From NCBI RefSeq assembly GCF_004010055.1, contig NZ_RQVT01000001.1:1-64000 (forward strand): a stretch of 64,000 bases of DNA, written 5' to 3'. The DNA comes from Psychroflexus aestuariivivens. Lineage in GTDB: Bacteria > Bacteroidota > Bacteroidia > Flavobacteriales > Flavobacteriaceae. Positions 14,927 through 38,263 of the stretch are shown here, one piece after another. Every line of letters begins with the position of its first letter. Positions within the stretch are counted from its first letter, which is position 1. A program made the position numbers and the translations under genes. The notes under the pieces are model-generated. The model did not search any database. It saw only the letters and a program-made list of their open reading frames with translations, and had not been told where the DNA came from.

Positions 14927-15048
14927 GTTAAAAAAATTTATGCTATCCGTTTAATTTTGGATAACTGGTTAAGATGATAACAATTCTTGCTATCGCTTTA
15001 ACAAAACTAAAATCTTTTTAAGTATTTATTCTCAGATTTGATATAAAG

Positions 15049-15069
15049 TTATCCACATAGTTTTCCACA
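15049..15069. other. Pair of DnaA-box-like sites
   Basis: TTATCCACA (15049-15057), identical to the classical DnaA box, and TTTTCCACA (15061-15069), one base off, lie 12 bases apart in the same orientation in an AT-rich spacer upstream of the HU gene. Two sites are too few to call an origin. Confidence 0.4.
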
Positions 15070-15417
15070 ATTTCGTGTGTTGCCCACCATTCAAGGCTTT
15101 ACAAAATTAGAAATACATAAAAAATGAAAAATTTAACATTTTTTAATTAAAAATTATTCAATAATTCTATTTTGAGTTGCTCAATAATTATGAATATCAG
15201 TCAATTTTCTAAAAAATCAACAGCATATGATTTTATTTTTGCATTTGTCGTTTGTATTATTAACAGACAACCCGATTTGTTCAGATTGAAAACCATATTC
15301 AAAATTCCCAAACTTAGTTATTGCCAACAAATTTCACCAAACTTTCAACATCGAATGAAAGTTTTAAATTAGCATTTCTTCTCGATTTGTAATTAGGTAT
15401 TGACAATCGTAAAAATT
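15070..15417. other. AT-rich intergenic region
   Basis: Left border of the defence island. No convincing gene; the short frame at 15172-15372 lacks a start signal and has no protein-like features. It presumably includes the promoter of the HNH gene. Confidence 0.4.
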
Positions 15418-16515
15418 ATGAGTAGTTTTAGGCGATTTAATTGTAGTATTGATTCAAGTTACTCAAATCTAGTTTTAATGAACCAACTTCCTTTTTCTCC
15501 AGACATTAATAATAATGCTTTAGCAAGTGTATTTAATTACACATCAGCAACCTATAAGTTTTACTGGTTTTTAAGTATAGTTGAAGAAATTGAATTAGGT
15601 TCAAAAGAGATTAAAAAGGAAAATATTTTTGCCAGAATGATTGCAAATGCTTGGTATCCTGTAAAGTATTTCAAGCTATCTTTTGGAAGTCAAGATTATA
15701 TTTCTGAATTAATCAATGACTTTTTTAATTCTACATCAATAACAATAAACGATGATAAAAAAGAAATAAGAAAACGATTGCTAAATACTAAGGAGTCTAG
15801 CATTTTAAAAAAGCTTTATCATCTAGATAAAAACGTTCCTCATAAATTCTTAAGTCCTTGGTATAAAGGGACTAAATCTGCGGTTTACGAAGCTTCACAA
15901 CGAGATTATGACAATTCAATTTACCAGTTATTTAAAACTCATATCATAGTTAATCAGAATTGGTATGATTACATTAGATTGAATGCAAAAATCATCAAGG
16001 ACTTTATTTATTGGAATTTAGCTTTGTTTATTCAAGCTAGAAATCCAAATACACCTGATGTTATTAATAAGCTCATAAAACAAGCTAAACGAAAAACGCT
16101 CACAAAACAACGACAGAAGTTTTGGAATGTGTATTTGGAGCAAAAACCAAATACTAAATGTATTTTTACTAATGAAATCTTAGACATTAACAACTATCAT
16201 GTTGATCATTTTGTACCCTATTCCTTTGTTTCTCACGATTTAATTTGGAATCTAGTTCCTATTAATTCAAGTTTTAATACGTCTAAAAACAATAAGCTTC
16301 CATCAATTAAAAAACATTTTAAGGATTTCTATAGCTTACAAAAAGATGCTATTGAAATGTTTGGTGAATCTATGCCCAAAAAATATAAAGAAGAATATTT
16401 GTCTGTTTTTCCAGATTTTAATGATCAAAGACATATTGATTTTATAAAGTTTAAGGATATTATAAGTCCTTTAATAACTGTGGCTCATAACAATGGTTTT
16501 GAATTTTTAGAATAA
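15418..16515 (+). CDS. HNH endonuclease (uncharacterised two-gene system)
   Basis: A 365-residue protein starting at ATG 15418. Its large N-terminal region (LPFSPDINNNALASVFNYTS, ATYKFYWFLSIVEE, FARMIANAWYP) is of a conserved type seen in a bacterial HNH family without known function. The C-terminal third holds the HNH fold: Cys248 (CIFTNE), His261-Val-Asp263-His264, then NLVPINSSFN and KNNKLPS, which together give the metal-binding DH, the middle Asn and the final Asn/Lys. It probably cuts DNA or RNA. It is 4 bases from the methyltransferase-HIT fusion gene and next to a Wadjet-type operon, which suggests defence. Confidence 0.8.
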   Translation: MSSFRRFNCSIDSSYSNLVLMNQLPFSPDINNNALASVFNYTSATYKFYWFLSIVEEIELGSKEIKKENIFARMIANAWYPVKYFKLSFGSQDYISELINDFFNSTSITINDDKKEIRKRLLNTKESSILKKLYHLDKNVPHKFLSPWYKGTKSAVYEASQRDYDNSIYQLFKTHIIVNQNWYDYIRLNAKIIKDFIYWNLALFIQARNPNTPDVINKLIKQAKRKTLTKQRQKFWNVYLEQKPNTKCIFTNEILDINNYHVDHFVPYSFVSHDLIWNLVPINSSFNTSKNNKLPSIKKHFKDFYSLQKDAIEMFGESMPKKYKEEYLSVFPDFNDQRHIDFIKFKDIISPLITVAHNNGFEFLE

Positions 16516-16519
16516 GTAT

Positions 16520-17380
16520 ATGGCTAATCAAAACATTAACTCACACCGCACCGCCAAGGAAAGAGAAAAGATGTCCTTTCCGACGAAATTTTTGCTTGGT
16601 GAAAACTTAATTGAAGGTAACGTATTAGATTTTGGCTGTGGTTACGGTAAAGATGTTGAAGAATTAAAAGTCAAAGGATTTGAAGTAGAAGGTTATGACC
16701 CACATTATCAACCTAATTATCCAAAGCAAAAATACGACACGATTTTATGTCATTATGTGTTGAATGTTCTGCAAAACCAAGATCAAGCAAAAGTTTTATA
16801 TCAAATTTCTAGTTTACTTAAGTTTGGTGGAAAAGCCTATTTTAGCGTAAGGAGAGATATTAAGAAAGCAAGTTTTAGAACACATTTCATCCATAAAGTT
16901 AAAACCTATCAGACCAATGTGATTCTTCCTTTTAAAAGCATTTTTAGAAATGACAATGTTGAAATTTATGAATATCAACATTATAGTTTTTTAAATCAAA
17001 ATAAATCTGAAGTCAGTCCATTTTTTGAAAAGCTAGAACCTAAAGAACAAGTTGGCGAATTGGCGAGTTGTTTTGCTTTTCGAGATAAATTTCCCGTTTC
17101 TGAAGGTCATACGCTTGTAATTCCAAAACGACAGGTTTCCAGTTATTTTGAATTGAGTTTTAGAGAGCAATCGGCTTGCTGGTTTTTGGTAAACCTGATT
17201 AAAGCAGACCTACAAAAAGAATTCAATCCCGATGGATTCAATATCGGCATCAATGTTGACGAAGCTGCTGGTCAAACTATTTTCCATTGCCATATCCACA
17301 TTATTCCAAGATATAAAAATGACGTTGAAAATCCGCGTGGTGGTGTGAGAGGAGTTATTCCTGGGAAGAAGGAGTACTGA
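16520..17380 (+). CDS. Methyltransferase-HIT fusion protein
   Basis: A 286-residue fusion. Residues about 30-125 form a class I SAM methyltransferase (VLDFGCGYG at 35-43, acidic loop at VEGYDPHY, ILCHYVLNVL as motif IV region); it lacks the (D/N)PP(Y/F) signature of base-modifying DNA methyltransferases. Residues about 160-286 form a HIT-family nucleotide-binding domain ending in the catalytic triad HCHIHII (His256, 258, 260). HIT enzymes hydrolyse or transfer nucleoside monophosphates. The pair may modify and resolve a nucleotide or nucleic-acid end produced by the upstream HNH nuclease; that link is inference. It converges on jetD, with only 9 bases between stop codons. Confidence 0.8.
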   Translation: MANQNINSHRTAKEREKMSFPTKFLLGENLIEGNVLDFGCGYGKDVEELKVKGFEVEGYDPHYQPNYPKQKYDTILCHYVLNVLQNQDQAKVLYQISSLLKFGGKAYFSVRRDIKKASFRTHFIHKVKTYQTNVILPFKSIFRNDNVEIYEYQHYSFLNQNKSEVSPFFEKLEPKEQVGELASCFAFRDKFPVSEGHTLVIPKRQVSSYFELSFREQSACWFLVNLIKADLQKEFNPDGFNIGINVDEAAGQTIFHCHIHIIPRYKNDVENPRGGVRGVIPGKKEY

Positions 17381-17389
17381 TGGATTGCA

Positions 17390-18238
17390 TTATCCTATTA
17401 TGTAAAATTCCTGATCAAGTCCTTTCTTTTCTGTGTTGATCATCATTATTAAGGTTAAAAGTTCAGGTTCTTGAATTTCTTTTATTTCTAAGTTTGGTTT
17501 TTGGATATTGAATCTTTCTCTATTTCCTTTTTTCAAATCACTTTCTATGTTTTCAGGAATATAAAAAGTTGCCTTTTCTTGTAAATGTTTTTTATATTCA
17601 TTTAGATAAATTCCTATACCTGCAAAATCAAAATCTCCAAAGTGTAAATAATTATTTGGTATAGAATTCATCCATTTTATAAAGTCCTTATTTTGATTTT
17701 GAGGATAACGTGATATAAATAAGGGATTAATGTTTTTGAACAAGTATTTCTGTTTGTGAATCTGACTAAAATTTTTTGTGTTCTCAACTCCAACAACTGT
17801 TATCTCTTTTGGTATTTTGAAAGATTCATAATCATAAATAAAAATAAAACTTCCTTTTTGAGGATTAATAATTATGGTATTGTTGTTTAATTCAGCCGTT
17901 ATAGAATTATAACTATTGACTAAAAAACCTTTAAATGCTCTCTCCTTTGAAACCTTAGAGTCTGTGGTTATTTTAGTTGATTCGGCACGAGTAGAATTTG
18001 GATTCTCTTTTAAAATAATGTAATCATTCAAATCATTAATCTGTAATTGATTTGCTAGGTAGATATGTAAACCTTTTTCATTTATTAATTCTAATGATTT
18101 TTTATGCTTCCCTTTTCTGTAAATAATATTCTCAGCAACTAAATCATCTATTAATCTTCCTTTAGCCGAACTATTTGGAATTGATTCACCATTGATTAGT
18201 TGTACTAATACTTTTGCTATTTTTAAGTTTAACTTCAT
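17390..18238 (-). CDS. MksG/JetD-type Toprim nuclease subunit
   Basis: A 282-residue protein, last gene of the Wadjet-type operon. The C-terminal half has a topoisomerase-primase (Toprim) site: Glu152 in VVGVENTKNF and Asp202/Asp204 in HFGDFDFAGIGIY. The N-terminal ~60 residues look like a winged helix. In Wadjet the JetD/MksG dimer cuts closed circular DNA after loop extrusion by the SMC motor. At 282 residues it is shorter than the roughly 350-400 I recall for many JetD proteins. It overlaps the SMC gene by one base. Confidence 0.8.
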   Translation of the reverse strand: MKLNLKIAKVLVQLINGESIPNSSAKGRLIDDLVAENIIYRKGKHKKSLELINEKGLHIYLANQLQINDLNDYIILKENPNSTRAESTKITTDSKVSKERAFKGFLVNSYNSITAELNNNTIIINPQKGSFIFIYDYESFKIPKEITVVGVENTKNFSQIHKQKYLFKNINPLFISRYPQNQNKDFIKWMNSIPNNYLHFGDFDFAGIGIYLNEYKKHLQEKATFYIPENIESDLKKGNRERFNIQKPNLEIKEIQEPELLTLIMMINTEKKGLDQEFYIIG

Positions 18239-21200
18239 TAATTAAGAACTCTGTTATCTACTTTTTTAATCAATCTATTAATCTTAGTGATGTATTTTTT
18301 TGAATTGGTTTTAGATTGTTCTTTTGCTAGTTTATAGGTATATTTATAGTCGGTAGCATTTTGACTTGTTGGCGAACCATTGATGAGTAAAATGTTTCTT
18401 TCATTGGCAAACCTTAAAATTCCTTTTTGATTAGTAGGATGAAGTGTGCCTATTTCGTCCATCATACAATGTAGCTTAAAGTCCTTAAATTTCTTTGAAG
18501 CATCAATTTTAAAAACATTCAACAACGAGATATTAATCATAGCTTTAACCAAAATATCTGTACCATTACTACCTACATTAGAAAGCTTTTCTACCCAACC
18601 AGAGTCGTTGTCATTCTCTATAATTCTAAATTGTAGATCAAAAGATTCTGATAGCGTTAAATTCTTGTTTTTTGATTTGTCCAACTCTTTTACCAGTTGT
18701 TTGAGCAAGTCAACCGCTTTTTGATTTTTCGTGTTACTTTCTGAAGATGTAAAAAGATTTGATTTTCCTAAAACAAGACTATTTTCATCGTTAAACTCTT
18801 TTATTTTAATCAATAGTCTTACAATAGGGTTTGAACTTTCTAGCGTTCTTATTTCCATTGTTTTGATGGCTTCAATGAAATTTTTGCCAAGAAAATCATC
18901 ATTTATTTTTTTAATTATTTTTTCAATTTCGCCCTGTTTTGAGTTTAGTTCTGTGGTTTCTCTACCAATTAAGTGAATAATGTGCGCAAACCTATCATTT
19001 ACACGTTTTTCATATTCTTTAATTTTATCTTCTTCAATAAATTCTTTAAGCTCAAATGCAAAATTTAGGAACTCTGAATCTTCGTTTAGTTTTACTTTAA
19101 ACTTAAAAACATTCTGTTCATCAAAATTACCTGTGAAAGCATTAACGGATTGTTGTAGCTCTTTAAAAGTTTCGATTCCTTTGTAGTATTTGCTGTTGAT
19201 TTCAGTAATGATAGCCGTGCCTTTCTTTTGATTATCAAAATCAACATTAGGTTTAGGGTCATCATAATAGTTTTTGACGCTTAAAAATGCATCTGAAAGC
19301 TTAAAACTTTCAAGTTCTTTCAAGTCACTATCAAATTCATTTATTTTGATTTGTATGGATTTAACAAATTCTTCTTGTTTTGCATATTTTGTGTTGATTT
19401 TATTCAACTCCATTTTATGTTCACTAATTATTGAAGTTTGCTTTTTCTCTAAACTTGCCTTGTCAACTTTTAATTGAGGCACTTTGTCAAATAGTTCTCT
19501 TTTGTCTTTATTGTACTCTATAACAATAGTTTCATTTTCCTTTATGTAATCAAGGTCTATTGTAATTTGGTTTAATCTGTCATCAATTAGAGTAAGTCTT
19601 TTTGTATCAGCTCCTTTGTTTTCTAATTCAGAATTCTGCTCTTTTTTTAATTCTTGAATCCTTTTATCAGATGCTGATTTTGCTTTTGAGATAGCAGTGT
19701 TTATTTCAGAAATTTCCTTGTTCTTAGTTTCTTCTAAAACTTTAATTTCGGTATCTCTCTCTTTTTCTTTTAAACTTTTTTTTCGTTTTATTCCTTTCTT
19801 AATCTTTTCTAAGATTTCTTCAGCTTTTAATTTCTTTGATGCAATATCATTTAAATCATCTTCTAATTTTTGAAAAACAGCTTCTTTTTCTGATTTTGCT
19901 TTTAAAATCCATTCCTCTAAATCAATCTTATTCTTTTTAAACTTCGCTTTGTTTTGAGAAATGGTATATTCGTTTTCTGCAATAGCCTCATTAAGGGTTT
20001 TTAGTTTTTTACCAAATTTAATTTTTAGCTTACTCAAGCTACTTTCTTTATTCGTATTAAGCTGTTGAATAGCATTTTGGATTTTATTAATCTCACCTTT
20101 ATAAACCTCAATTTCTTGCTGGTATTCTTTTACTGATTTAATCCTGTTTTTTAATGTATTTAAGTTTAGCTCTATACCAAATAGAGTAGAGGAATTAGTA
20201 TCTATCAATTTAGGATTCAATTCTGTGTTGAAGAGTACATTGTCTTCATCAATCACTTTTCCTATGGTATTTTGCCAATTATTAATGTTATCGTTTAACC
20301 AGCCATAAAGAGAAGATTTGCTTTGTTGAATTTTGTTTTCAATGTTCTCAATTTTTAATGTTAGTTTTTTACTTTTTTCATTTTCTTTTTCAACGGAAGA
20401 GCTAAAGTGTCTTTCTTCTTCTTTTGTTTCTAATTCCCATTCTTTGCGAATTGTTTTTGTTTCGTTTGTTGCATTTAGAATGCTGTTTTTCGAGTTTGAG
20501 ATTTTGTTACTAAGTGTTTTTCCATTGTCTTTACATTTCTCAATTTCTGTTAAAAAAAAGGTTCTATGTTTTAATTCTGATTTCTTTCTTTTTAAACTAT
20601 TTTCATTCTCTTTTACATTATCTAAATCAATGATTGCCTTGTCTATTTCATCTTTATTTTCATCATTGATATGAGTAATTAATTTTTGGTACTTGTCAAA
20701 TACTGAAGATTTATGTTCTCCAAAATCACTTTTTATATTAAGAATATCAGCGTTCCGTGTATTTGTAAACTCTTGCTGTTGGTTCTGGATTTGTTTAATA
20801 AGAGCTTCAAATTTTTGACTAATTTGCGCAAATTTAGAGGTAAGCAGATTTTTTTCGTCTCCTAAAGTTCTTTGCTCAACAGTTAAAGCGTCTTTATTAG
20901 AAACTTTTGAAATTAGTTTTTTAATGTTTTGATTTTCGTATTCCTCTTGTTTTTGCTTAGCTTCTGATAGCCTTGTAGATATTAGTTTTATATCAGAAAC
21001 AATATCTTGCTCTCTTCTTTTATGTGTTTTTAGTAAGTTTTCTCTTTTTTTTGAAAGAACATTTAATTCGTTAACTTCTTTAGAATAACTAGAATTTAAA
21101 ATAGGTTTTTCGTTTTCGATAAAGTTTATTCTAGCAGCTAATGCAAAAGTTAGATCTTTTTTTTCTATGTTAAGAAAATTGTAAACTCTGTATCTATCAA

Positions 21201-21945
21201 TAATTCTATCAGCTTGTTTCTTTACTATAATTTGTCCTTTTCGGTTTTCTTTAAACCATATTTTAATATCGTTGATTTGTGTTTCAAAATCACGTAAATG
21301 ATTTTTGGCATAATTCTCAATATCTATTACAAATTCCTCATCATTTAAAGAATTTATGATAGTATCTTTAATAAATTGTGCTTCAAGGTTAGTGTTTAGA
21401 AGTACATTTTGAATAGTTCTTGGTATATTTTGATACTGCTTACTTTCTGCTAGTGCATACTTTTTGAACTCAGGTTTTAAACCGCTATTATCTCCATAAA
21501 TAATTCTGCGATACTCGTCATAGCCTTTTATGAGGTTTGTATAATAAATTTCTCTTCCAAACGCATTTCTGATGTTGTCCCAGCTTTCAAAAGCTCTGTT
21601 ATCCTTGTCTATAAATAATTCTCTTTTGTATGCAGAGTTAAAAAAACGAAATGCAACTTTCCCATTTACTTTGTAGGCTAAAACACAAAATGGTATATTC
21701 TCTTTTAGTATTTCATAAACAATGTAAGAGTTCTGATATTGGAAGTAGTAATCGTCAAATCCTTTCTTTTGTTTCGGAATTCCTAGTTTGGTTTTATTGG
21801 CATTGTAAAAAAATAATATAGCACGAAGTAGCGTGCTTTTTCCTACGCCTTGTGTTCCAATTAAGTGAACATTTCCATCTAATTCGATTTCGGCATATTG
21901 TACAGATGCACTATTTATAAAAACTATTTTATTCAGGTATCTCAT
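18238..21945 (-). CDS. MksB/JetC-type SMC-like ATPase
   Basis: A 1235-residue SMC/MukB-like motor. Walker A is GTQGVGKST at 30-38. A very long Lys/Glu-rich coiled coil fills the middle (about 270-920) with a break near the centre as hinge. The C-terminal head has a signature-like VGSNGTDILVKAM and Walker B HCMMDEIG (acidic pair about 1163-1164). In MksBEFG/Wadjet complexes this ATPase extrudes DNA loops and the complex recognises small circular DNA such as plasmids. It overlaps the upstream MksE-like gene by 17 bases. Confidence 0.9.
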   Translation of the reverse strand: MRYLNKIVFINSASVQYAEIELDGNVHLIGTQGVGKSTLLRAILFFYNANKTKLGIPKQKKGFDDYYFQYQNSYIVYEILKENIPFCVLAYKVNGKVAFRFFNSAYKRELFIDKDNRAFESWDNIRNAFGREIYYTNLIKGYDEYRRIIYGDNSGLKPEFKKYALAESKQYQNIPRTIQNVLLNTNLEAQFIKDTIINSLNDEEFVIDIENYAKNHLRDFETQINDIKIWFKENRKGQIIVKKQADRIIDRYRVYNFLNIEKKDLTFALAARINFIENEKPILNSSYSKEVNELNVLSKKRENLLKTHKRREQDIVSDIKLISTRLSEAKQKQEEYENQNIKKLISKVSNKDALTVEQRTLGDEKNLLTSKFAQISQKFEALIKQIQNQQQEFTNTRNADILNIKSDFGEHKSSVFDKYQKLITHINDENKDEIDKAIIDLDNVKENENSLKRKKSELKHRTFFLTEIEKCKDNGKTLSNKISNSKNSILNATNETKTIRKEWELETKEEERHFSSSVEKENEKSKKLTLKIENIENKIQQSKSSLYGWLNDNINNWQNTIGKVIDEDNVLFNTELNPKLIDTNSSTLFGIELNLNTLKNRIKSVKEYQQEIEVYKGEINKIQNAIQQLNTNKESSLSKLKIKFGKKLKTLNEAIAENEYTISQNKAKFKKNKIDLEEWILKAKSEKEAVFQKLEDDLNDIASKKLKAEEILEKIKKGIKRKKSLKEKERDTEIKVLEETKNKEISEINTAISKAKSASDKRIQELKKEQNSELENKGADTKRLTLIDDRLNQITIDLDYIKENETIVIEYNKDKRELFDKVPQLKVDKASLEKKQTSIISEHKMELNKINTKYAKQEEFVKSIQIKINEFDSDLKELESFKLSDAFLSVKNYYDDPKPNVDFDNQKKGTAIITEINSKYYKGIETFKELQQSVNAFTGNFDEQNVFKFKVKLNEDSEFLNFAFELKEFIEEDKIKEYEKRVNDRFAHIIHLIGRETTELNSKQGEIEKIIKKINDDFLGKNFIEAIKTMEIRTLESSNPIVRLLIKIKEFNDENSLVLGKSNLFTSSESNTKNQKAVDLLKQLVKELDKSKNKNLTLSESFDLQFRIIENDNDSGWVEKLSNVGSNGTDILVKAMINISLLNVFKIDASKKFKDFKLHCMMDEIGTLHPTNQKGILRFANERNILLINGSPTSQNATDYKYTYKLAKEQSKTNSKKYITKINRLIKKVDNRVLN

Positions 21946-22501
21946 TTTCTATTTCTTCAGGAATATTAATAGTTGTTATAATATCTTTTAAATAATTAAA
22001 AGAGGTAAGTACTTTGTATGTCTCAGTTATTTCATTTTCTAAGGTTATGAAATTATCTTTTTCTAGCTTTTCAATGATTTTTTTTATCCGTTCAGAATTT
22101 GTCTTTTTATCTCCACTTACTCTTTTTAGCTTTTCCAATTTGGTTTTTAAATCAGCGTTGTTTTTTAGTTGATTTACAATGTCTGATGCTGAAAATCTAA
22201 AGCCTACGTCAAAAGAGGTGTCGAAAGTTTTAAAAAAGTCTAGGATATCAATCCAATTAAACGCTTTTTCTAGTTTTCTGTCTAGGTCTGCATTGTTTTC
22301 TATACGACTAAAATAAAAATATTCGTTGCCTTGCTCTAATATATAATTAATTTGATAAAAATATTCGTATAAATCTTCAAACGTTTCTTCATCTTCTAAA
22401 ACTCTGTAGAGTTTTTTAATGTCGTCTTTAGGGCTGTTTGAACAGATAAATTCTCCTTTGCGAAGTACGTTAAATATTTCTGATGTGTACTTTGGATACA
22501 T
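21929..22501 (-). CDS. MksE/JetB-type kite subunit
   Basis: A 190-residue acidic protein made mostly of helices, with two winged-helix-like halves as in MukE/MksE. Conserved-looking stretches include LEQGNEYFYFSRIE and WIDILDFFKTFD. In the complex, MksE/JetB dimers bind the kleisin and DNA. Gene order, overlap with the SMC gene (17 bases) and the 6-base gap from the kleisin gene support the call more than sequence alone. Confidence 0.75.
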   Translation of the reverse strand: MYPKYTSEIFNVLRKGEFICSNSPKDDIKKLYRVLEDEETFEDLYEYFYQINYILEQGNEYFYFSRIENNADLDRKLEKAFNWIDILDFFKTFDTSFDVGFRFSASDIVNQLKNNADLKTKLEKLKRVSGDKKTNSERIKKIIEKLEKDNFITLENEITETYKVLTSFNYLKDIITTINIPEEIENEIPE

Positions 22502-22507
22502 TAAAAT

Positions 22508-23704
22508 TTATTTTGAAAATACCATGGCATATTCAATACCATTGGCAGTTTGGTAATTATCTTGTATTTGTAATTCTTCTTCATACTGAGAAATAATTTG
22601 ACAAAAAATCGTGACTCTTTCGTTAAAATCTATGTCTTTCATAAAATCATAGTTTAAAATGAAATTGAATAAATTGTCACTGGTGGCAATGAAACGATTC
22701 CTTACTTCTTCTAGATTTACCATTATTTCTTCTTCAATATTATTTTGAAGATAGTCATTAGAAATACTTTCTGCTATGTCTTGCTTGAAAAGTAATCTAT
22801 TTCTATAATTTCTAGCAATTCTTTTAATAGTATCAAAAGCTCGCTCGTCCTCTCTAAGAAAGTCAATAGATAAGTTTATGGATTGATTAGTTCTTGCTTC
22901 AAAAATGACTTGATTTTTGTTTGAAATTATTTGTTTGATGTCAGTTTCAGCTTCAATTGTAAAATTGTCTTTTAAGTATTTAAGTTTTCGTAGTTTTTCT
23001 AAAAACCTTCCTTGTTGTTTTATTTGATTTAGATAATCAATTATCTGTTTTTCTATTTCAATTAGGTTGTGTGAGCATTCTCCTAACTGACTTTTTAGTT
23101 CAACAATAATTCTACCTAACTCTTCATCTAAAGCTCTATTGAAAAAAGTGAGTTCTTCCTCATTAATAAGTGACAATGTCTGATGTATCAAGTTTATAAT
23201 TACTGTTCTTTTCTCATCAAGATTTTCTAGTTTTAATTGTTTGTTTTTATAGTTCGATTCATTCTTAAAAGTATTTTCGATATTACGTCTTAAATCTACT
23301 ACACTTCTAAGTGTGATAAGCCCCATATTGCGAAACGTTTTTTTTATAAATCGTAAGTAGGTATATCTTTTCGTTTCGCTATGTTCATTTAAAAAGTAAA
23401 CAATGTTTTCTTTTATACTTTTTATATTTTCGTCAATATATGAAAGGTTGATTTCTTCGCTAACAAATAACACTTGTTCAAAAAACTCTAAAAATTGCCC
23501 ATCAAGTTCCAAAAAACCTCCATTTTCTCTTATGACAGATTTTTGAATTAATAAGTCAATACGACTTTCTTCATAATCAACAAGTTCTAAAGCATCACTC
23601 AATTTGTAATCAATGGATTTCCTTTTGCTAAACATTTCAGATATTAGTTTTTCCTCTCTTTTCAAAGCGGTAACTAATTCTTTTATGTCGTTAAAAGTGT
23701 TCAT
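22508..23704 (-). CDS. MksF/JetA-type kleisin subunit
   Basis: A 398-residue MukF-like kleisin and first gene of the operon. The N-terminus (1-90) is a winged-helix-like domain, the middle (about 90-330) is a long helical/coiled region (QLKLENLDEKRTVI..., EELGRIIVELKSQLGE), and the C-terminus ends in a short winged-helix-like end (YEEELQIQDNYQTANGIEYA). Kleisins bridge the two SMC heads. The ATG at 23704 is the only plausible start. The 216-base upstream gap holds repeats that could control the operon. Confidence 0.75.
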   Translation of the reverse strand: MNTFNDIKELVTALKREEKLISEMFSKRKSIDYKLSDALELVDYEESRIDLLIQKSVIRENGGFLELDGQFLEFFEQVLFVSEEINLSYIDENIKSIKENIVYFLNEHSETKRYTYLRFIKKTFRNMGLITLRSVVDLRRNIENTFKNESNYKNKQLKLENLDEKRTVIINLIHQTLSLINEEELTFFNRALDEELGRIIVELKSQLGECSHNLIEIEKQIIDYLNQIKQQGRFLEKLRKLKYLKDNFTIEAETDIKQIISNKNQVIFEARTNQSINLSIDFLREDERAFDTIKRIARNYRNRLLFKQDIAESISNDYLQNNIEEEIMVNLEEVRNRFIATSDNLFNFILNYDFMKDIDFNERVTIFCQIISQYEEELQIQDNYQTANGIEYAMVFSK

Positions 23705-23920: not shown

Positions 23921-24811
23921 TTAGTCTTTGGTTTTATCTGGGGATAAATTGTTTTTAAGTTTTAGAACTAATTTAACCAACAAGAGGCAAATAAAACCAA
24001 TCCCTAAACCAAGAATAAATTCTGTTACTATAGCAGGCAGGACAGGAAAAAGACCATGAAAAACATCAACATTATGAGAGAAAATACCGCCGGAAACCAG
24101 CAATAAAGCCAAAGTACCAATGACCGATAAACTTTTGATGACTTTGGGTAGCGCATTTACTAAAACGTGGCCAAGTTTGGCTTTAAAACTATTTTCATTT
24201 GAACTTTGATTGATCAATTTGACTCCAGTATCATCCATTCTAACGATTAAAGCAACGATGCCGTATACGCCAACAGTAGCAATCAACGCAATAATGGTGA
24301 CCACAGGAATCTGTATACTTAAACCTTTATCGGAAACTGTGCCGAGCGCAATAATTACAATCTCAACAGACAAAATGAAATCAGTTAAAATAGCAGAATT
24401 GATGCGTTCTTTTTCTAAAGCGATGATTTCACTTTCTGTTTGCGTGTTTTTGAGTTCTTCTTTTTTAGAATCTGGATAGGGCACAAAGAAATGATAGATT
24501 TTTTCTGCGCCTTCATAAGCAAGATACAAGCCACCTAAAACCAATATTATGGTGACGGCAACAGGCAGAAAAGCACTCAACAAAAAAGCAACGGGCAGTA
24601 TAATTAATTTATTGAGTAAGGAGCCTTTTGTAATAGACCACAACACCGGTATTTCTCTGGAAGATACAAAGCCAGAAGCTTTTTCGGCATTCACAGCCAA
24701 GTCATCGCCAAGAATACCTGCGGTTTTTTTAGCAGCCACCTTACTCATTACAGCAACATCGTCCATAAGTGCAGCGATATCATCCAAAATTGCAAAAAAT
24801 CCAGAAGCCAT
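23921..24811 (-). CDS. DUF808 family inner-membrane protein
   Basis: A 296-residue protein with the N-terminal signature of DUF808/YedI: MASGFFAILDDIAALMDDVA, then about six to seven membrane segments and a cytoplasmic loop containing VPYPDSKKEEL. These conserved inner-membrane proteins have no established function. Length is usual for the family. It is monocistronic; the next gene on the same strand (Wadjet kleisin) starts 216 bases downstream. Confidence 0.9.
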   Translation of the reverse strand: MASGFFAILDDIAALMDDVAVMSKVAAKKTAGILGDDLAVNAEKASGFVSSREIPVLWSITKGSLLNKLIILPVAFLLSAFLPVAVTIILVLGGLYLAYEGAEKIYHFFVPYPDSKKEELKNTQTESEIIALEKERINSAILTDFILSVEIVIIALGTVSDKGLSIQIPVVTIIALIATVGVYGIVALIVRMDDTGVKLINQSSNENSFKAKLGHVLVNALPKVIKSLSVIGTLALLLVSGGIFSHNVDVFHGLFPVLPAIVTEFILGLGIGFICLLLVKLVLKLKNNLSPDKTKD

Positions 24812-25050
24812 AAATCTTTAGTTTTATATATGAATAGAATCGCCGAAAATACTTTTTTTTCTATTTCATTTGGTGTTATTCAGAAAAAAATAAGCGAGCT
24901 TTCATTATCTTCATTTCTAAAGTTCGACTAAATCATATAGAATAGCTTTTTGAATTTCAATTTGAATATTCTGAGATAGGAGGAAATGCTTGAATTTCCT
25001 TAGATTCATGGCTGCTCTTTTTGTAAAACATAAGATTCATTTTCAAATAA

Positions 25051-25068
25051 TGTAAAATAAACTTGACA
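25051..25068. promoter_or_regulatory. Operator-like dyad 1 (TGTAAA-N6-TTGACA)
   Basis: Inverted repeat with one mismatch, identical in layout to the perfect dyad at 25091-25108, 40 bases away. Its right half contains the -33 TTG of the promoter. Confidence 0.45.
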
Positions 25069-25092
25069 TTCTAATTTTTTGAATTATATTTG
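25063..25092 (+). promoter_or_regulatory. Bacteroidota-type promoter (TTG-N19-TATATTTG)
   Basis: TTG at 25063-25065 and TATATTTG at 25085-25092 separated by 19 bases, an exact fit to the Bacteroidota -33/-7 consensus. It reads into the membrane protein/regulator pair starting at 25136. The rest of 24812-25135 is AT-rich with no gene. Confidence 0.7.
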
Positions 25093-25108
25093 TAAAGTTT
25101 TATTTACA
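25091..25108. promoter_or_regulatory. Operator-like dyad 2 (TGTAAA-N6-TTTACA)
   Basis: Perfect 6-bp inverted repeat immediately after the -7 element, so a bound protein would block transcription start. The likely binder is the Xre-type regulator encoded by the second gene of the operon. Confidence 0.5.
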
Positions 25109-25135
25109 TAATGTATAATCTTAATTACTTATAAA

Positions 25136-25525
25136 ATGACAGCAGAAAAGAAAAAAGTATTGAAATTGGCTGGCTGGACGTGGTCTTGGGTGGCTTCGTT
25201 AGCCTTTGCGACTTTTGGACCAAAATTTATTTGGGATGACCACCAATTGCTCACTATTCTCGCCGTGGCGACCAATTTTGCTAATGGCATTGCCATGATT
25301 ATTGCTAACCGTAACTATTTTAATAGTTTGGACGAATTGCAACGAAAAATTCAACTGGAAGCTCTGGGAATTACTTTAGGTTTAACAGTTATTTTTGGCA
25401 TCACTTACAGTGTCATGGACACGACAAACCTAATTCCTATGGATGCAGAAATCAGTTTGCTTGTTGGTTTTATGGGCATCACTTACTTTATTGCTTTGTT
25501 AATCAATAGAAATCGTTACGCATGA
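25136..25525 (+). CDS. Four-helix membrane protein paired with Xre regulator
   Basis: A 129-residue protein with four hydrophobic segments and a conserved-looking cytoplasmic loop NSLDELQRKIQLEALG between segments two and three. It is not assigned to a named function. It overlaps the downstream regulator gene by 4 bases, so the two are translated together. Such membrane-protein/small-Xre pairs recur in bacteria, and the membrane protein may sense a signal that frees or holds the regulator. Confidence 0.75.
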   Translation: MTAEKKKVLKLAGWTWSWVASLAFATFGPKFIWDDHQLLTILAVATNFANGIAMIIANRNYFNSLDELQRKIQLEALGITLGLTVIFGITYSVMDTTNLIPMDAEISLLVGFMGITYFIALLINRNRYA

Positions 25526-25716
25526 AAAATAAACTGAAAGTTTTGCGTGCAGAACACGATTATACGCAAGACCAACTGGCAAAAGCGGTTGAGGTCTCGC
25601 GGCAAACGATCAATGCCATAGAAAAGGGAAAGTTCGATCCCAGTTTGGTGCTTGCCATAAAGCTGGCCAGACTTTTCGAAACAGATATTGAAACTATTTT
25701 TATTTATGAAAAATAA
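25522..25716 (+). CDS. Small Xre-family HTH regulator
   Basis: A 64-residue Cro/CI-type helix-turn-helix protein consisting almost only of the HTH (YTQDQLAKAVEVSRQTINAI as helix 2-turn-helix 3), ending FETDIETIFIYEK like the YozG-type group. It probably binds as a dimer to the two TGTAAA dyads around its own promoter. Confidence 0.85.
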   Translation: MKNKLKVLRAEHDYTQDQLAKAVEVSRQTINAIEKGKFDPSLVLAIKLARLFETDIETIFIYEK

Positions 25717-25735
25717 GGTTGAGTTGTATAAAAAT

Positions 25736-26155
25736 TTAGGCTAGTTTTTTTGTTTTGCTCACTTTGAGTATGGAATACAGCAAAAAGCCAACGGGACCAA
25801 ACATAAAGCAAAGCAATAGACAAGGAATGATCAGAAAATGATTGAGGCCATGCTTCCGAGACTGATTCAGAATCCAGTTGCCGACCAACAAGTCAAACAC
25901 AAGATAATGAACCCAGCCTGTCAAGACGGCTTCATCGGAGGAAAACATGGCTTTTATGCCTTCGAGTTTGCTAAAAGATTCCATGTCCATATCTCCAAAA
26001 CCTTGGATGACATAAACCAAATACACCACGGCCATAGCCATAGAAAAACAATAAATAACGGGATTTCTCCAGGATTTGCCAGGAAAGAAAATAAGAATCA
26101 GCCAGGCAGGAATAACGATGGTGTTAACGATTTGAAATACGATTGATGCAGTCAT
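25736..26155 (-). CDS. ABA4-like membrane protein (DUF4281)
   Basis: A 139-residue protein with four membrane segments. It carries the ABA4-like signature GWVHYLVFDLLVGNWI, followed by HFLIIPCLLLCFMFGPVGFL. The plant member is needed for neoxanthin synthesis; bacterial members are uncharacterised. Carotenoid-related work is possible in a pigmented flavobacterium, but no carotenoid gene is in the window. Confidence 0.8.
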   Translation of the reverse strand: MTASIVFQIVNTIVIPAWLILIFFPGKSWRNPVIYCFSMAMAVVYLVYVIQGFGDMDMESFSKLEGIKAMFSSDEAVLTGWVHYLVFDLLVGNWILNQSRKHGLNHFLIIPCLLLCFMFGPVGFLLYSILKVSKTKKLA

Positions 26156-32284: not shown

Positions 32285-32315
32285 AACCCCCATATACACT
32301 GGGTATATGAGGGTT
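32285..32315 (-). terminator. Stranded original tmRNA terminator
   Basis: Arms 32285-32297 and 32303-32315 form a near-perfect 13-bp stem. On the minus strand it is followed by GGGGGTTTTC and then TTTTTT a few bases on. It directly abuts the leftover 3' end of tmRNA in the left repeat, so before insertion it would have ended the tmRNA transcript. Confidence 0.65.
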
Positions 32316-32334
32316 AATTGTGGAGTCGGGGAGA
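32314..32334. other. attL (21-bp direct repeat)
   Basis: Identical to 38302-38322; it is the displaced copy of the tmRNA 3' end (contains GTGGAGTCGGGGAGA). Confidence 0.9.
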
Positions 32335-32459
32335 GTACTTAATATTAAAACACTTGAAAACAGGTAAAACTAATTAAAATACAAAATATTGATAAACAGT
32401 ATTTTATAAATATAATCGTTTCACTTATATAAAGATACATTAAAATAGATTTAACCATA

Positions 32460-32498
32460 TAGCACAAAAATAGCACAACTTTAATTAAGTTTGTGCTA
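32460..32498. promoter_or_regulatory. Left arm-type sites for the integrase
   Basis: TAGCACAAA (32460-32468) and TAGCACAAC (32471-32479) start 11 bases apart, with an inverted copy TTTGTGCTA at 32490-32498 just before the integrase start. The same pair with the same spacing occurs at the right end (38232-38251). Confidence 0.6.
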
Positions 32499-32511
32499 AA
32501 CAAATAATGAT

Positions 32512-33828
32512 ATGGCTACTATAAAATTTTTGTATCGCTCACGAAAGCAGAATGAACCAATAACAGTAAAATTAAATTTTTCGCACAATGGTAAACAATA
32601 CAGACTGTTTGCAAAAAGTGAAATCACAGTTTATACAAAAGATGAGATAAAAGATAATTTTAAACTAAACGCAGCTAAGATATTTGACAAGCTAATTAAA
32701 GGTGAGCTTAAAGATATGTTACACGAAAAAATAATAAAGCCTAGATTAGATAGTGAAATTGCAGACCTTAAATATTATATCTTAGATGAGTTTGATAATA
32801 CCAATATTGAAACGGTAGCAAAAAATAAAGATTGGCTTAAAAATATTGTTGATAAATATTACAAGCCTAGTGATGAGAATGATACCATACAGCTACCAAC
32901 TAATCTTGTTGATTATTTTGATGTTTATATCAAAAGTAAAAAAGGTGATATAAAAGAGTCTTCAATAAAAAAATATAAGGTTATCCAGTCAAAGCTAAAC
33001 CGATTAGAAAAACACTTTAATACTACTTTGAAAATTGAAAATATAAACGAAAATTTTAAAAATCAATTCAATGAGTTTTGCGACCTCAACCAGTACTCAA
33101 ATAACACCAAACAAAGAGAATTAGTTTTAATTAAAACGGTTTGCTTTCACGCTAGATACAACGGTTTAAAGACTCACAAACAACTCGAGAAATTGAAGTT
33201 TAACAGAGAAGATGTTGAGCATCCTTATTTAAGCTTTGATGAGCTAGAAACTATTAAAAACAAACACTTTGATAAAGATTATTTAGATAATGCCAGAGAT
33301 TGGCTCATTATAAGTTGTTTCACTGGTCAACGAGTTTCTGACTTTATGAAATTTACTAGTAAAAATATTAGAATAGAAGACAATAAAAAGTATTTAGAGT
33401 TTAAGCAGCAAAAGACTAGCAACCTTACAACGATACCAGTATTAAAACAAGTTAATGAAGTCCTAAACAAAAGAGGTGGCAATTTTCCTAGACCAATATC
33501 AGACCAAAAATATAACGATTACATAAAAGAAGTTTGCAGACTTTGCGAGATTGACGAGGTTATGACTGGCAAAAAGAGAATAAGTATAGCACCAGATGGA
33601 GTAAAACCACAAAAGCATCATTATAGAGATGTTATAACCTCAGCACCAAAATACGAATTTATCAGCTCGCATATTGGTAGGCGTTCCTTTGCTACTAATC
33701 ATTATGGTAAAGTACCAACAACTTATTTAATAGGAATTACAAACCACAGCACCGAAGCACAGTTTTTAAATTATATTCAAAAAGGTAGTAAAGACCTAGC
33801 TAAAGATGCACACAATTATTTTGAGTAA
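32512..33828 (+). CDS. Tyrosine recombinase/integrase
   Basis: A 438-residue phage-type integrase. The N-terminal arm-binding region is followed by a SAM-like core-binding domain (about 135-225) and the catalytic domain with Arg274 (TGQRVSD), a Lys in QQKTSN, His387 and Arg390 (SHIGRRSF), His412 (TNHST) and the nucleophile Tyr421 (FLNYIQ). It recombines the 21-bp att sites in tmRNA. It is the first gene inside the left end. Confidence 0.95.
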   Translation: MATIKFLYRSRKQNEPITVKLNFSHNGKQYRLFAKSEITVYTKDEIKDNFKLNAAKIFDKLIKGELKDMLHEKIIKPRLDSEIADLKYYILDEFDNTNIETVAKNKDWLKNIVDKYYKPSDENDTIQLPTNLVDYFDVYIKSKKGDIKESSIKKYKVIQSKLNRLEKHFNTTLKIENINENFKNQFNEFCDLNQYSNNTKQRELVLIKTVCFHARYNGLKTHKQLEKLKFNREDVEHPYLSFDELETIKNKHFDKDYLDNARDWLIISCFTGQRVSDFMKFTSKNIRIEDNKKYLEFKQQKTSNLTTIPVLKQVNEVLNKRGGNFPRPISDQKYNDYIKEVCRLCEIDEVMTGKKRISIAPDGVKPQKHHYRDVITSAPKYEFISSHIGRRSFATNHYGKVPTTYLIGITNHSTEAQFLNYIQKGSKDLAKDAHNYFE

Positions 33829-33884
33829 ATAAAAAGTTTTATAAACCGTTCCAATTTTTCCCATTTTTCCAAAAACAAAAGATA

Positions 33885-34772
33885 ATGACTAAAGAAAAAA
33901 GCAATAAACAATTGAATAATAGCGAGATAAACCAAAAAGCTGAACAACTTGAAAAAATTAAAAACAAAGTCAAGTTTGATGAGAAACTAAGCAAAAAAGA
34001 AAATGAGATATATCAAAACTACCTTAGTATAGTTAAAAAGTTTCCGCCAGTTTATGAGAATACACCTTATGGTGATTTGAAACAATTATATGATATTTTT
34101 AAAGCTCACGATTTCAATAAAATGAATGATATAGAAAAACAATCTTTTAAAATTGAATTAGATGAGCTAGTTAACGGCTTAATTGATTTTATCAAAACAG
34201 TACCAATGACTAGTAAAAGATTTACTAATGTTATAAACAGACTCAAATATCTTTATACGCTTTATTATGATGTAGATGTATTTAACGAAACCGATAAAAA
34301 ACGTATTGAGCGAAATGATGCGTTTGATTTTGAATTAGAACCAAAAGCAAAACCAGATGGAAGGTTACTAATTACAGATGCAGAAAAAAGAATATTAAAA
34401 GCCATTGATGAGGTGAAAGCAAAACACAATCCTAAAGGTAGCAGTAAAGAATATGCTGAATATCAAAAGTTATTTAAACAGCAAATACCAGATGCAGCCT
34501 TTGATGAGCTTATGAAGCTCGATGCAAAGTATCGAATTACATTTATGTACCTAACTGGTGATTTACTGAATATTTATAACGATAATGGACTAAATGCGAA
34601 AAAAACGGCTGAAACTATCGAATCGTTTATAGGGACTAATTATTCTAATGCAATAACACCAACTATAAGACGCAATCCAGCACAAAAAAACTTTGCTACA
34701 AATGAATGCATCGAATACAAACCATTAACCAATATCATTGAAAAATACAATATCAAAGTAAACGAGAATTAA
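33885..34772 (+). CDS. Element protein of unknown function
   Basis: A 295-residue, highly charged, mostly helical protein without signal peptide or membrane segment. The N-terminal 50 residues are Lys/Glu/Asn-rich. A middle helical segment (FTNVINRLKYLYTLYYDVDVF) and the C-terminal ITFMYLTGDLLNIYNDNG are its most distinctive parts. Not recognised. It lies between integrase and excisionase genes, a position often used for regulators or cargo on small islands. Confidence 0.75.
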   Translation: MTKEKSNKQLNNSEINQKAEQLEKIKNKVKFDEKLSKKENEIYQNYLSIVKKFPPVYENTPYGDLKQLYDIFKAHDFNKMNDIEKQSFKIELDELVNGLIDFIKTVPMTSKRFTNVINRLKYLYTLYYDVDVFNETDKKRIERNDAFDFELEPKAKPDGRLLITDAEKRILKAIDEVKAKHNPKGSSKEYAEYQKLFKQQIPDAAFDELMKLDAKYRITFMYLTGDLLNIYNDNGLNAKKTAETIESFIGTNYSNAITPTIRRNPAQKNFATNECIEYKPLTNIIEKYNIKVNEN

Positions 34773-34787
34773 CCTATTTTAAACTTT

Positions 34788-34807
34788 ATACTAGTATATA
34801 CTAGTAT
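34788..34807. promoter_or_regulatory. Tandem perfect palindromes before the excisionase-like gene
   Basis: Two back-to-back copies of the 10-bp palindrome ATACTAGTAT, 62 bases upstream of the HTH gene start. Two adjacent half-helical-turn sites suit cooperative repressor or replication-initiator binding. Confidence 0.55.
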
Positions 34808-34868
34808 CTTAAATAACTGTAAACCAATTAAATACATTTGTCAGGCAATTAATCTAAATTTAATTATT

Positions 34869-35171
34869 ATGACAGATGTAAAAGAAAAAAACAATCCATT
34901 AAAGGAGTTAGTAAGCTCAATTATTGAGCCTTCTTTAAAAAGGATTGACAAGCTAGAAGCTACACTTTTGGACAAGCTCGAAGGAATCAACAACCAATCA
35001 CCAAAAGACGATTTAATAACACCAGATGAGGTTTGTAAACGTCTTCAAATTAGCCGTACTACTTTATGGAATTATGAAAACAAAGGCTACCTAGTTAGTA
35101 AAGGTATCGGAGCTAGACGTTATTATAACTGGAATGAAGTTGTAGAAGCTTTACAAACTAAAAATTTGTAG
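34869..35171 (+). CDS. Excisionase-like HTH protein
   Basis: A 100-residue protein: a helical N-terminal half (likely dimerising; SSIIEPSLKRIDKLEATLLD) and a C-terminal MerR/excisionase-type winged helix (TPDEVCKRLQISRTTLWNYE, then GARRYYNWNEVVEAL). On integrative elements such proteins direct excision and control operon transcription. It is 3 bases upstream of the primase gene. The ATACTAGTAT tandem in its leader is a likely target. Confidence 0.85.
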   Translation: MTDVKEKNNPLKELVSSIIEPSLKRIDKLEATLLDKLEGINNQSPKDDLITPDEVCKRLQISRTTLWNYENKGYLVSKGIGARRYYNWNEVVEALQTKNL

Positions 35172-35174
35172 GTT

Positions 35175-36731: not shown

Positions 36732-36749
36732 CGAAGGAAATACAATCAA

Positions 36750-36842
36750 ATGAAACTGAAGATCAATAAAACCATTTTTGGAATTTGTACCTACATATTA
36801 TTGACTTTTAAAATGTTGCCTTGCAATCCAAATGCACCATAA
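36750..36842 (+). CDS. Possible 30-residue hydrophobic peptide
   Basis: A short frame with an AAGGAA ribosome-site-like sequence about 10 bases before ATG 36750. It encodes a Lys-rich start and one membrane-like segment (IFGICTYILLTF), ending in Cys/Pro/Asn. It lies between the primase gene and the next element gene. It may be chance. Confidence 0.25.
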   Translation: MKLKINKTIFGICTYILLTFKMLPCNPNAP

Positions 36843-36940
36843 AGACTTACGTTTTCAACAAAAAGTCAAAAAAGCAATTTAATAACAGAATAGCAGCAAT
36901 TAAGAAATAAACATTTGCTGCTTAACAAATACCTAAAATT

Positions 36941-37624: not shown

Positions 37625-37773
37625 TGAAAACTAAGAAAGTCAAAATTTTAAGAGCGCACAATAATTCAGAACTCGAGAATAAAATAAATGAGTTACTGGC
37701 TAAAGATTGGAAAATAACCAATAATTTAGCTATTGATGAATCTGGCTATATTTACACAATTATGAAGCAGTAA
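37624..37773 (+). CDS. 49-residue DUF1737-like protein
   Basis: A short gene coupled to the previous one (TAATG overlap). The sequence KILRAHNNSELENKINELLA, then DWKI and a C-terminal GYIYTIMKQ matches the small DUF1737 pattern (a helix for long-linked ends followed by two strands). The role is unknown. A terminator follows within 30 bases, supporting that this is the true 3' end of the operon. Confidence 0.7.
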   Translation: MKTKKVKILRAHNNSELENKINELLAKDWKITNNLAIDESGYIYTIMKQ

Positions 37774-37800
37774 ATTAGTGTTATGTGTTGTATTTGAGAA

Positions 37801-37830
37801 ACCTCGCTAGCAATGGCGGGGTTTTTTATT
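37801..37830 (+). terminator. Terminator of the element operon
   Basis: An 8-bp GC-rich stem (AACCTCGC / GCGGGGTT, one G-T pair), 8-base loop and T-run. Confidence 0.8.
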
Positions 37831-38231: not shown

Positions 38232-38251
38232 TAACACAAAAATAGCGCAAC
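38232..38251. promoter_or_regulatory. Right arm-type sites for the integrase
   Basis: TAACACAAA (38232-38240) and TAGCGCAAC (38243-38251) start 11 bases apart, mirroring the left-end pair. Confidence 0.55.
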
Positions 38252-38263
38252 TTTTAAAATAAT

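What the first reader, a model, noticed from the sequence alone, without database searches (positions are those of the whole stretch)
15418..17380. HNH nuclease plus methyltransferase-HIT fusion: candidate undescribed defence system
Two genes 4 bases apart: a nuclease with an uncharacterised N-terminal domain, and a fusion joining a non-DNA-type SAM methyltransferase to an intact HIT triad. The pair abuts a Wadjet-type operon in a defence-like setting. No characterised system known to me combines HNH, methyltransferase and HIT activities.
Basis: partly seen in the sequence, partly recalled or inferred. Interest (0 to 1): 0.7.

Follow-up and report, generated by a model that had tools for sequence, protein, structure and literature searches.

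The report
Mobile nuclease plus HIT-methyltransferase defence pair
Two neighbouring bacterial genes, a DNA-cutting enzyme and a fused methyltransferase-HIT enzyme, form a recurring unit that probably defends against foreign DNA and may sense sulfur-modified DNA, a combination for which we found no published description.

Summary
The pair is real. The HNH gene most likely starts at 15478 (345 aa), not 15418, and ends 4 bp before an intact methyltransferase-HIT fusion (16520-17380). The association recurs: HNH family A or B sits directly upstream of the fusion in 43 of 49 loci, and some HNH nuclease does in 17 of 17 carriers among 345 Bacteroidota genomes. The fusion is patchy (4 of 199 Flavobacteriaceae), so not housekeeping. 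The fusion is the constant part; the nuclease is exchanged, once for a sulfur-binding-domain (SBD) HNH enzyme. HNH also occurs with a lone HIT protein (3 loci). Neighbours include Wadjet, Ssp/Pbe phosphorothioation, Druantia and Cas9-like genes, but at many sites ordinary genes. Best reading: a horizontally moving restriction module whose nuclease carries a winged-helix domain resembling the phosphorothioate-reading SBD, with HIT(-methyltransferase) as partner enzyme. Defence rests on context only; SBD likeness is suggestive (structure Z 6.4, sequence tests weak or negative); phosphorothioate chemistry is inference. Ten paper searches found no description of the pair.

The parts
15478..16515 (+). 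HNH endonuclease (family A), 345 aa; alternative upstream starts ATG 15418 and TTG 15400
   Evidence: ORF; homolog starts; HNH_4
15478..16080 (+). N-terminal helical/winged-helix domain, possibly SBD-like by predicted structure; invariant Tyr26-Lys27 at 15553-15558
   Evidence: AF2; VIA match to 8h0l_B Z 6.4; hhalign register
16162..16302 (+). HNH_4 (Cas9-type) catalytic motif
   Evidence: residues 243-289 of the frame begun at 15436; Cas9 alignment
16520..17380 (+). methyltransferase-HIT fusion, 286 aa
16520..17014 (+). class I SAM methyltransferase domain; N-terminal part related to TIGR04096 (below that family's cut-off)
17039..17317 (+). HIT domain with intact His triad at 17285-17299
17390..18238 (-). 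neighbour: JetD-position DUF7281 protein of a Wadjet/Mks-like operon
18238..21945 (-). neighbour: JetC-like DUF3584 SMC protein
21929..22501 (-). neighbour: JetB/MksE-like protein
22508..23704 (-). neighbour: JetA-position protein (no convincing Pfam/PADLOC match)

Best explanation
The pair is a horizontally moving anti-invader (restriction) module. The HNH protein is the effector: an SBD-like winged-helix reader joined to a Cas9-type HNH cutter, which I expect to act on DNA with an altered backbone state, phosphorothioate (PT) being the leading candidate. The MTase-HIT protein is the constant partner; its HIT half probably hydrolyses a nucleotidyl substrate made or exposed by the nuclease or by PT chemistry (adenylylated or phosphorothioate nucleotides), and the MTase half adjusts the same chemistry or the nuclease. 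Shown: gene anatomy, intact active sites, tight linkage, nuclease exchange, patchy distribution, defence and PT-gene neighbours in a minority of loci. Inferred: defence activity, SBD likeness, PT sensing, and every substrate of MTase-HIT.
For: Linkage: HNH A/B directly upstream, same strand, gap -49 to +106 bp in 43 of 49 fusion loci, 32 overlapping when the longest frames are taken; an HNH of some kind next to the fusion in 17 of 17 carriers among 345 phylum genomes; Fisher p 9e-21 for A/B versus fusion (16 shared, 1 fusion only, 8 HNH only, 320 neither). Patchy: 4 of 199 Flavobacteriaceae. Exchange: within genus g257 the fusion is 89-92% identical while the nuclease is 61% identical (G349/G484) or unrelated (G470); the G470 nuclease is an SBD-HNH protein matching solved SBDHga1 at E 2.3e-7. 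SBD likeness: predicted N-domain matches 8h0l_B (SBDHga1 with PT-DNA), Z 6.4, 113 residues, rmsd 3.0, rank 2, and ScoMcrA 5zmm Z 4.9, rank 13; N-domain profiles of HNH-A and HNH-B against Hga-type SBDs both put the invariant YK on the SBD pocket motif (HK/YK/NK), with scores reached by 4 and 2 of 150 column shuffles. PT genes within 5 kb of the pair: SspB+SspC L048, SspB+PbeA+PbeC-like L032, SspD overlapping HNH in L023, a DUF4007 fragment in L029, and short DUF4007-cluster members in L036/L037. Of 7 plasmid records with distant HNH relatives that I opened (of 16 found), Synechocystis, Hymenobacter and Leptolyngbya carry DUF4007 and cysteine desulfurase genes in the stretch. MTase N-part hits TIGR04096, E 3e-20.
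Against: No experiment. Against PT: PT genes were recognised near only 6 of 49 loci; the window's genome gave no DUF4007 or SspD match (neither has a positive control); comparison with classical SBDs was no better than shuffles (66 and 44 of 150), and with Hga-type SBDs a reversed HNH-B profile scored 18.5 against 19.7 observed; hhalign probabilities are 3% or less, and full-length HNH-B aligned elsewhere, though HNH-A and HNH-B N-domains against each other reach only 9%; an SBD profile did not match the window nuclease and an N-domain profile found no SBD among PDB sequences; structural Z 6.4 is below the tool's caution level and a Cdc6 winged helix ranks first (Z 6.8). Published SBD-HNH genes have dnd clusters nearby in under 3.6% of cases (PMC7461809, passages). 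Four of the 7 opened plasmid records show no clear PT set. Against mobility and defence: no plasmid record of 72,556 holds the fusion at 80% coverage; many loci have ordinary genes on both sides; the near/far comparison is not a calibrated enrichment. No HNH A/B was found beside the fusion in two cyanobacteria (L046, L047), and no HIT beside HNH in G127, G275, G437 and G412 in the stretches read.
Confidence: 0.45

Rival explanations
1. Defence module unrelated to phosphorothioate: the N-domain is a generic winged helix that reads sequence or another modification, and MTase-HIT makes, destroys or senses a nucleotide signal that controls the nuclease, as proposed by the PADLOC authors for the Thoeris HIT protein ThsC.
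For: Best structural match is a Cdc6 winged helix (Z 6.8); PT genes were recognised near only 6 of 49 loci; HIT domain weakly resembles ThsC (E 6e-7); ThsC proposal read in PMC8565338 passages.
Against: Slot swap with an SBD-HNH enzyme; recurrent Ssp/Pbe neighbours; no cyclase-type gene was recognised among the neighbours that I annotated one by one, which are a part of all neighbours.
Confidence: 0.3
2. Toxin-antitoxin like unit: the HNH protein is a toxic nuclease and MTase-HIT (or HIT alone) is the neutralising or repairing partner, which would explain a constant partner with exchangeable nucleases.
For: Overlapping genes in 32 of 43 pairs, constant partner with swapped nuclease; decayed copy in L015 where no HNH is found and the fusion is truncated.
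Against: Nuclease comes first in the operon; HNH genes occur with no HIT in the stretch read (L071 in G127, L120 in G437), which a toxic nuclease could hardly allow; fusion without HNH A/B in L046 and L047.
Confidence: 0.15
3. Classical restriction-modification pair in which the MTase protects host DNA from the HNH enzyme.
For: MTase next to an HNH nuclease; an MTase domain is also fused directly in front of HNH in L132 and L133.
Against: MTase domain is about 165 aa with no room for a target-recognition domain; nearest folds are small-molecule and tRNA MTases; no DNA-MTase Pfam family matched; HNH+HIT units with an unfused HIT directly after HNH exist (L072, L073, L130).
Confidence: 0.05
4. 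Accessory genes of the Wadjet operon in particular.
For: jetA follows the fusion on the same strand in 6 of 49 loci, within 11 bp in 5 of them, with two different Jet types.
Against: jet genes were found near only 7 (firm) or 8 of 49 loci; six loci that share a flank gene with the window lack them; several other defence genes occupy the same position.
Confidence: 0.05

Closest known systems
SBD-HNH phosphorothioate-dependent restriction enzymes (EcoWI, SprMcrA, SBDHga1; ScoMcrA as SBD-SRA-HNH)
   Same: N-terminal reader followed by an HNH cutter; predicted fold match to 8h0l and 5zmm; one homologous operon carries an SBD-HNH enzyme in the same slot
   Different: HNH is Cas9-like HNH_4; no significant sequence match to classical SBDs; no HIT or MTase-HIT partner is mentioned in the passages read (PMC7461809, PMC6224610)
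Ssp / Pbe phosphorothioation systems (SspABCD-SspE, PbeA)
   Same: SspB, SspC, SspD or PbeA genes lie near some copies of the pair
   Different: SspE is DUF262-DUF1524 (PMC9646914 passages); no SspD or DUF4007 match in the window genome (without positive control)
TIGR04096, phosphorothioation-associated putative methyltransferase
   Same: N-terminal about 85 residues match (E 3e-20)
   Different: 72 bits against a cut-off of 150; fused to HIT instead of the long C-terminal part
ThsC HIT protein of Thoeris type II (PADLOC)
   Same: HIT domain in a defence setting
   Different: Weak match (E 6e-7), fused to MTase, no Thoeris gene recognised beside it
Wadjet (JetABCD)
   Same: Recurrent physical neighbour
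   Different: The pair shares no component with it

Membership tests
SBD-HNH PT-dependent restriction enzyme | HNH nuclease domain with intact catalytic residues | tested here: met
   HNH_4 E 2.3e-10; H244 25/25, N267 25/25, D/E243 19+6 of 25
SBD-HNH PT-dependent restriction enzyme | N-terminal domain with the SBD fold | tested here: inconclusive
   VIA Z 6.4 to 8h0l_B and 4.9 to 5zmm_B; Cdc6 winged helix 6.8
SBD-HNH PT-dependent restriction enzyme | Sequence homology to the SBD family | tested here: inconclusive
   No SBD hit in PDB sequence search; SBD profile does not match the window protein; Hga-type profile comparison above most shuffles (4/150, 2/150), classical SBD not (66/150, 44/150)
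SBD-HNH PT-dependent restriction enzyme | Sulfur pocket residues H116/R(K)117/Y164/P165 | tested here: inconclusive
   YK invariant in 25 of 25 and aligned to the HK position by hhalign; the proline equivalent was not determined by superposition
SBD-HNH PT-dependent restriction enzyme | PT-dependent binding and cleavage | not testable with these tools
   needs biochemistry
Ssp/Dnd phosphorothioation system | PT-installing genes (DndC/SspD, SspB/SspC) in the same locus or genome | tested here: inconclusive
   None among the seven window proteins scanned; no SspD or DUF4007 match in the genome, but neither search had a positive control and DndC was not searched
TIGR04096 methyltransferase | Score above the family cut-off (150 bits) | tested here: not met
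   72.4 bits
Wadjet | JetABCD components | tested here: not met
   Neither protein of the pair matches a Jet model; the neighbouring operon does, divergently
Type II restriction-modification | DNA methyltransferase with target recognition | tested here: not met
   No DNA-MTase Pfam family among the matches; about 165-residue domain without extra module
HIT superfamily | HxHxH triad and HIT fold | tested here: met
   Pfam E 4e-23; FHIT/HIT structures up to Z 15.7; triad conserved 43/42/43 of 43

The most novel reading that the evidence does not exclude
A sulfur-chemistry immune module: the HNH protein reads phosphorothioate (or a chemically similar backbone mark) with an SBD-like pocket, and MTase-HIT is the first processing enzyme of that chemistry in a defence operon, its HIT half desulfurating phosphorothioate nucleotides (as human HINT1 does with dGMPS, releasing H2S) or removing adenylyl groups from backbone intermediates, and its MTase half methylating sulfur. 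It would be a PT eraser or detoxifier paired with a PT reader whose nuclease is swapped over evolutionary time.
Probability: 0.15. Interest if true: 0.88.

Novelty: new variant of a known kind. Interest (0 to 1): 0.62.

Why it matters
If right, it links HIT enzymes, so far marginal in bacterial immunity, to nucleases that may read DNA backbone sulfur, and gives a compact two-gene system in which a constant enzyme partners with exchangeable nucleases. HINT1 is known to desulfurate nucleoside phosphorothioates (PMC8775712, abstract and passages), so whether a defence HIT enzyme processes PT nucleotides is directly testable. It could also give a lead on the phosphorothioation-associated methyltransferase family TIGR04096, for which my one search found no functional paper.

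Tried and rejected
Housekeeping genes: rejected by patchiness (4 of 199, 17 of 345). Chance neighbours: rejected. A guess that the HIT-only or MTase-only relatives (L051-L064) also pair with HNH: no HNH of type A or B in any of the 14. Plasmid or phage carriage: 0 of 113 matching plasmid records cover 80% of the fusion; one distant HNH match in 50,697 phage records (the fusion was not searched there). A guess that relatives share dabA beside the pair: no match; other flank genes do match. An SBD Pfam accession recalled from memory is not in the library. Sequence-only detection of an SBD in the HNH family and profile comparison with classical SBDs failed; only Hga-type SBDs gave a signal. A viral-contig scan with the G470 nuclease found nothing. 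A defence comparison was attempted (143 near proteins, 94 far): near families shown were JetA (3 members), JetB, PbeA, PDC-S36 and PD-T4-1 (2 each), then SspC, PDC-S41, mREase_IV and PDC-M11A (1 each); far ones PDC-S48 and DEDDh (2 each), then singles such as PDC-S05, RTasHel and GajB. The tool shows 25 of 107 and 25 of 71 families and PADLOC models hit common helicases, so I do not count this as statistics. From the list of 151 near proteins one fell off at the limit of 150 and I left out seven (five large ones and L036:2-2968 to fit the size limit, and the HNH-C gene itself). No terminator was found and no more promoter matches than in shuffles at the pair.

Full report
Observation. The window belongs to genome G000, contig C43; the closest relatives of the fusion are in Psychroflexus. 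Both genes are present. Relatives of the nuclease begin at ATG 15478, so the protein is probably 345 aa. The nuclease gene has 27% GC like the Jet operon, whereas MTase-HIT has 34.5%, near the window mean of 32%; this fits an exchanged nuclease beside a resident partner, but is only suggestive.

Families. The nuclease matches only HNH_4, in its C-terminal part, with Cas9 HNH domains as closest solved relatives. The partner matches Methyltransf_23 and HIT; its N-terminal part also matches TIGR04096, below cut-off. PADLOC has no convincing model for either (best Cas9 E 6e-9 through the HNH motif, ThsC E 6e-7). AlphaFold2 models are confident (pLDDT 86.8 and 87.6). MTase-HIT aligns with FHIT/HIT structures (up to Z 15.7) and with small-molecule and tRNA methyltransferases (Z about 12-13.5).

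Co-occurrence. A genome-contig scan gave 62 loci; 48 of them (L003-L050), with the window, carry the fusion in whole or part (49 loci). HNH of family A or B lies directly upstream on the same strand in 43 of 49 (gap -49 to +106; 32 overlap with longest-frame starts). The six others: L012 has a third HNH type (C; translation), L010 a short remnant clustering with it, L050 HNH-B on the other strand, L015 no HNH and a truncated fusion, L046 and L047 (cyanobacteria) no HNH A/B. In L024 the fusion frame ends early (233 aa). The remaining 14 loci match only the HIT part or (L054) the MTase part and have no HNH A/B. In 199 Flavobacteriaceae the fusion is in 4, all with an adjacent HNH, and HNH A/B matches are in 8. 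In 345 genomes of the phylum the fusion is in 17 and HNH A/B in 24, 16 shared and adjacent; the 17th (G470) has a different HNH protein 3 bp upstream. The two samples overlap. Fisher p values are 1.1e-6 and 9e-21; they ignore phylogeny.

Minimal unit and exchange. Of HNH carriers without the fusion, G012 and G115 (HNH-A, the latter broken) and G454 (HNH-B) have a lone HIT protein of 121-123 aa directly after HNH. G434 has an MTase domain fused in front of HNH; G466 and G488 look the same by length and match position only. G127, G275, G437 and G412 show none of these in the stretch read, and G144 has only fragments. In genus g257 the fusion is 89-92% identical among G349, G470 and G484 while the nuclease is 61% identical (G349/G484) or unrelated (G470); G423 of another genus has a fusion 94% identical to that of G349 but a nuclease 61% identical. 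The G470 nuclease (P0001) is an SBD-HNH protein: its N-part matches solved SBDHga1 at E 2.3e-7 and my ten-sequence SBD profile at E 9e-17 among eight proteins.

SBD likeness of the window nuclease. The best structural matches of its N-domain are a Cdc6 winged helix (Z 6.8), SBDHga1 8h0l_B (Z 6.4, 113 residues aligned of 146, rmsd 3.0) and, at rank 13, ScoMcrA (Z 4.9); the tool warns that Z under 8 may mean only a common arrangement. Foldseek's own first 50 are essentially Cas9 chains. Sequence searches do not find SBDs, and the SBD profile does not match the window protein. Profile comparison gives probabilities of 3% or less. With Hga-type SBDs the best alignment of the N-domains of HNH-A and HNH-B places the invariant Tyr-Lys on the SBD His/Tyr/Asn-Lys, reached by 4 and 2 of 150 column shuffles; the full-length HNH-A profile agrees, the full-length HNH-B profile aligns elsewhere, and a reversed HNH-B profile scores nearly as high (18.5 against 19.7). 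With classical SBDs 66 and 44 of 150 shuffles reach the score. In SBDs this Lys/Arg and His line the sulfur pocket (PMC6224610, passages). I call this suggestive.

Neighbourhood. Next to or near the pair: type I jet genes (L031 -4 bp, L042 +2, L045 +9, the last cut by the contig end), window-type jet genes (L021 +11, L024 +211 from the early stop, L028 +4, window convergent; L008 probably, upstream), DEAD-UvrD helicase (L007 -4 bp), PDC-S36 (L014, L023), a Druantia DruE-type helicase (L022), a Cas9-like protein (L011), NERD (L005; a shorter relative in L003), DUF559-type nuclease (L040), type IV restriction helicase (L004; L039 by clustering). PT genes: SspB and SspC (L048), SspB, PbeA and a PbeC-like protein (L032), SspD (L023), a DUF4007 N-terminal fragment (L029), and short members of the same cluster (L036, L037, assigned by clustering only). 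Distant HNH relatives (26-33% identity) were found in 16 plasmid records; of the 7 opened, Synechocystis, Hymenobacter and Leptolyngbya have DUF4007 and cysteine desulfurase genes in the stretch, with PAPS reductase in Hymenobacter, Synechococcus NIES-970 has an aminotransferase-type gene, and Calothrix, Allochromatium and Segatella show no PT set. Many other loci have ordinary genes on both sides, such as peptidase M28 or ATP synthase genes. At least one of three flank genes of the window (23921-26155) recurs near the pair in L004, L006, L007, L009, L011 and L015, with different or no defence genes between, so this looks like a hotspot in which the Jet operon is one occupant (inference).

Mechanism. 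I commit to a restriction module with an SBD-like reader-cutter and a HIT(-MTase) partner. Steps shown: anatomy, intact active sites, linkage, exchange. Steps inferred: defence, PT sensing, HIT substrate. Human HINT1 turns dGMPS into dGMP with release of H2S (PMC8775712, abstract and passages), which makes PT nucleotides a plausible HIT substrate; adenylylation of the DNA backbone in PT synthesis and other HIT activities are recalled, not looked up. The MTase substrate is unknown.

Literature. Ten searches found no paper on this combination. Passages were read in PMC10853773, PMC12839542, PMC8565338, PMC6224610, PMC7461809, PMC12458937, PMC13092281, PMC8775712 and PMC9646914; the passages shown do not describe HNH paired with HIT or MTase-HIT. 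The product name of TIGR04096 occurs in one genome paper (listing only). Most subscription papers are not in the library, so novelty is provisional.

Noticed in passing
window 32314-38322: Integrated element: 21-bp identical direct repeats (32314-32334 and 38302-38322), the right one overlapping the 3' end of tmRNA (38308-38707, minus strand), with ORFs that look by eye like a tyrosine recombinase (32512) and a primase-helicase (35175); GC 29%.
   Followed up: partly
L105:577-1491 and 1498-2349: An SBD-HNH protein occupies the nuclease slot before MTase-HIT in G470; same-genus genomes carry HNH-B there.
   Followed up: yes
L132:1405-3069 and L133:1345-3108: Methyltransferase domain fused in front of an HNH-B-like nuclease; in L132 followed by an MTase-HIT as well; L134 and L135 look similar by length.
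   Followed up: partly
L065:8743-10119 and 14996-17068: Synechocystis plasmid pSYSM encodes an HTH_3-HNH relative with DUF4007 and cysteine desulfurase nearby, and a 690-aa protein annotated as phosphorothioation-associated methyltransferase beside another small HNH gene.
   Followed up: partly
window 17390-23704: The Wadjet/Mks-like operon is divergent: PADLOC matches are weak (JetC E 7e-7, JetD E 1e-4) and the JetA-position protein matches nothing, so annotation by PADLOC would probably miss it; relatives in L021, L024, L028.
   Followed up: no
L142:159-1321: An SBD(Hga-type)-HNH gene lies beside a DndB gene on a Chlorohelix plasmid, unlike the reported usual separation of SBD-HNH from dnd genes.
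   Followed up: no
L053, L055-L063: SAR116 genomes carry a HIT protein that aligns through the C-terminal end of MTase-HIT (43-49% identity) without the MTase part and without HNH A/B nearby.
   Followed up: no
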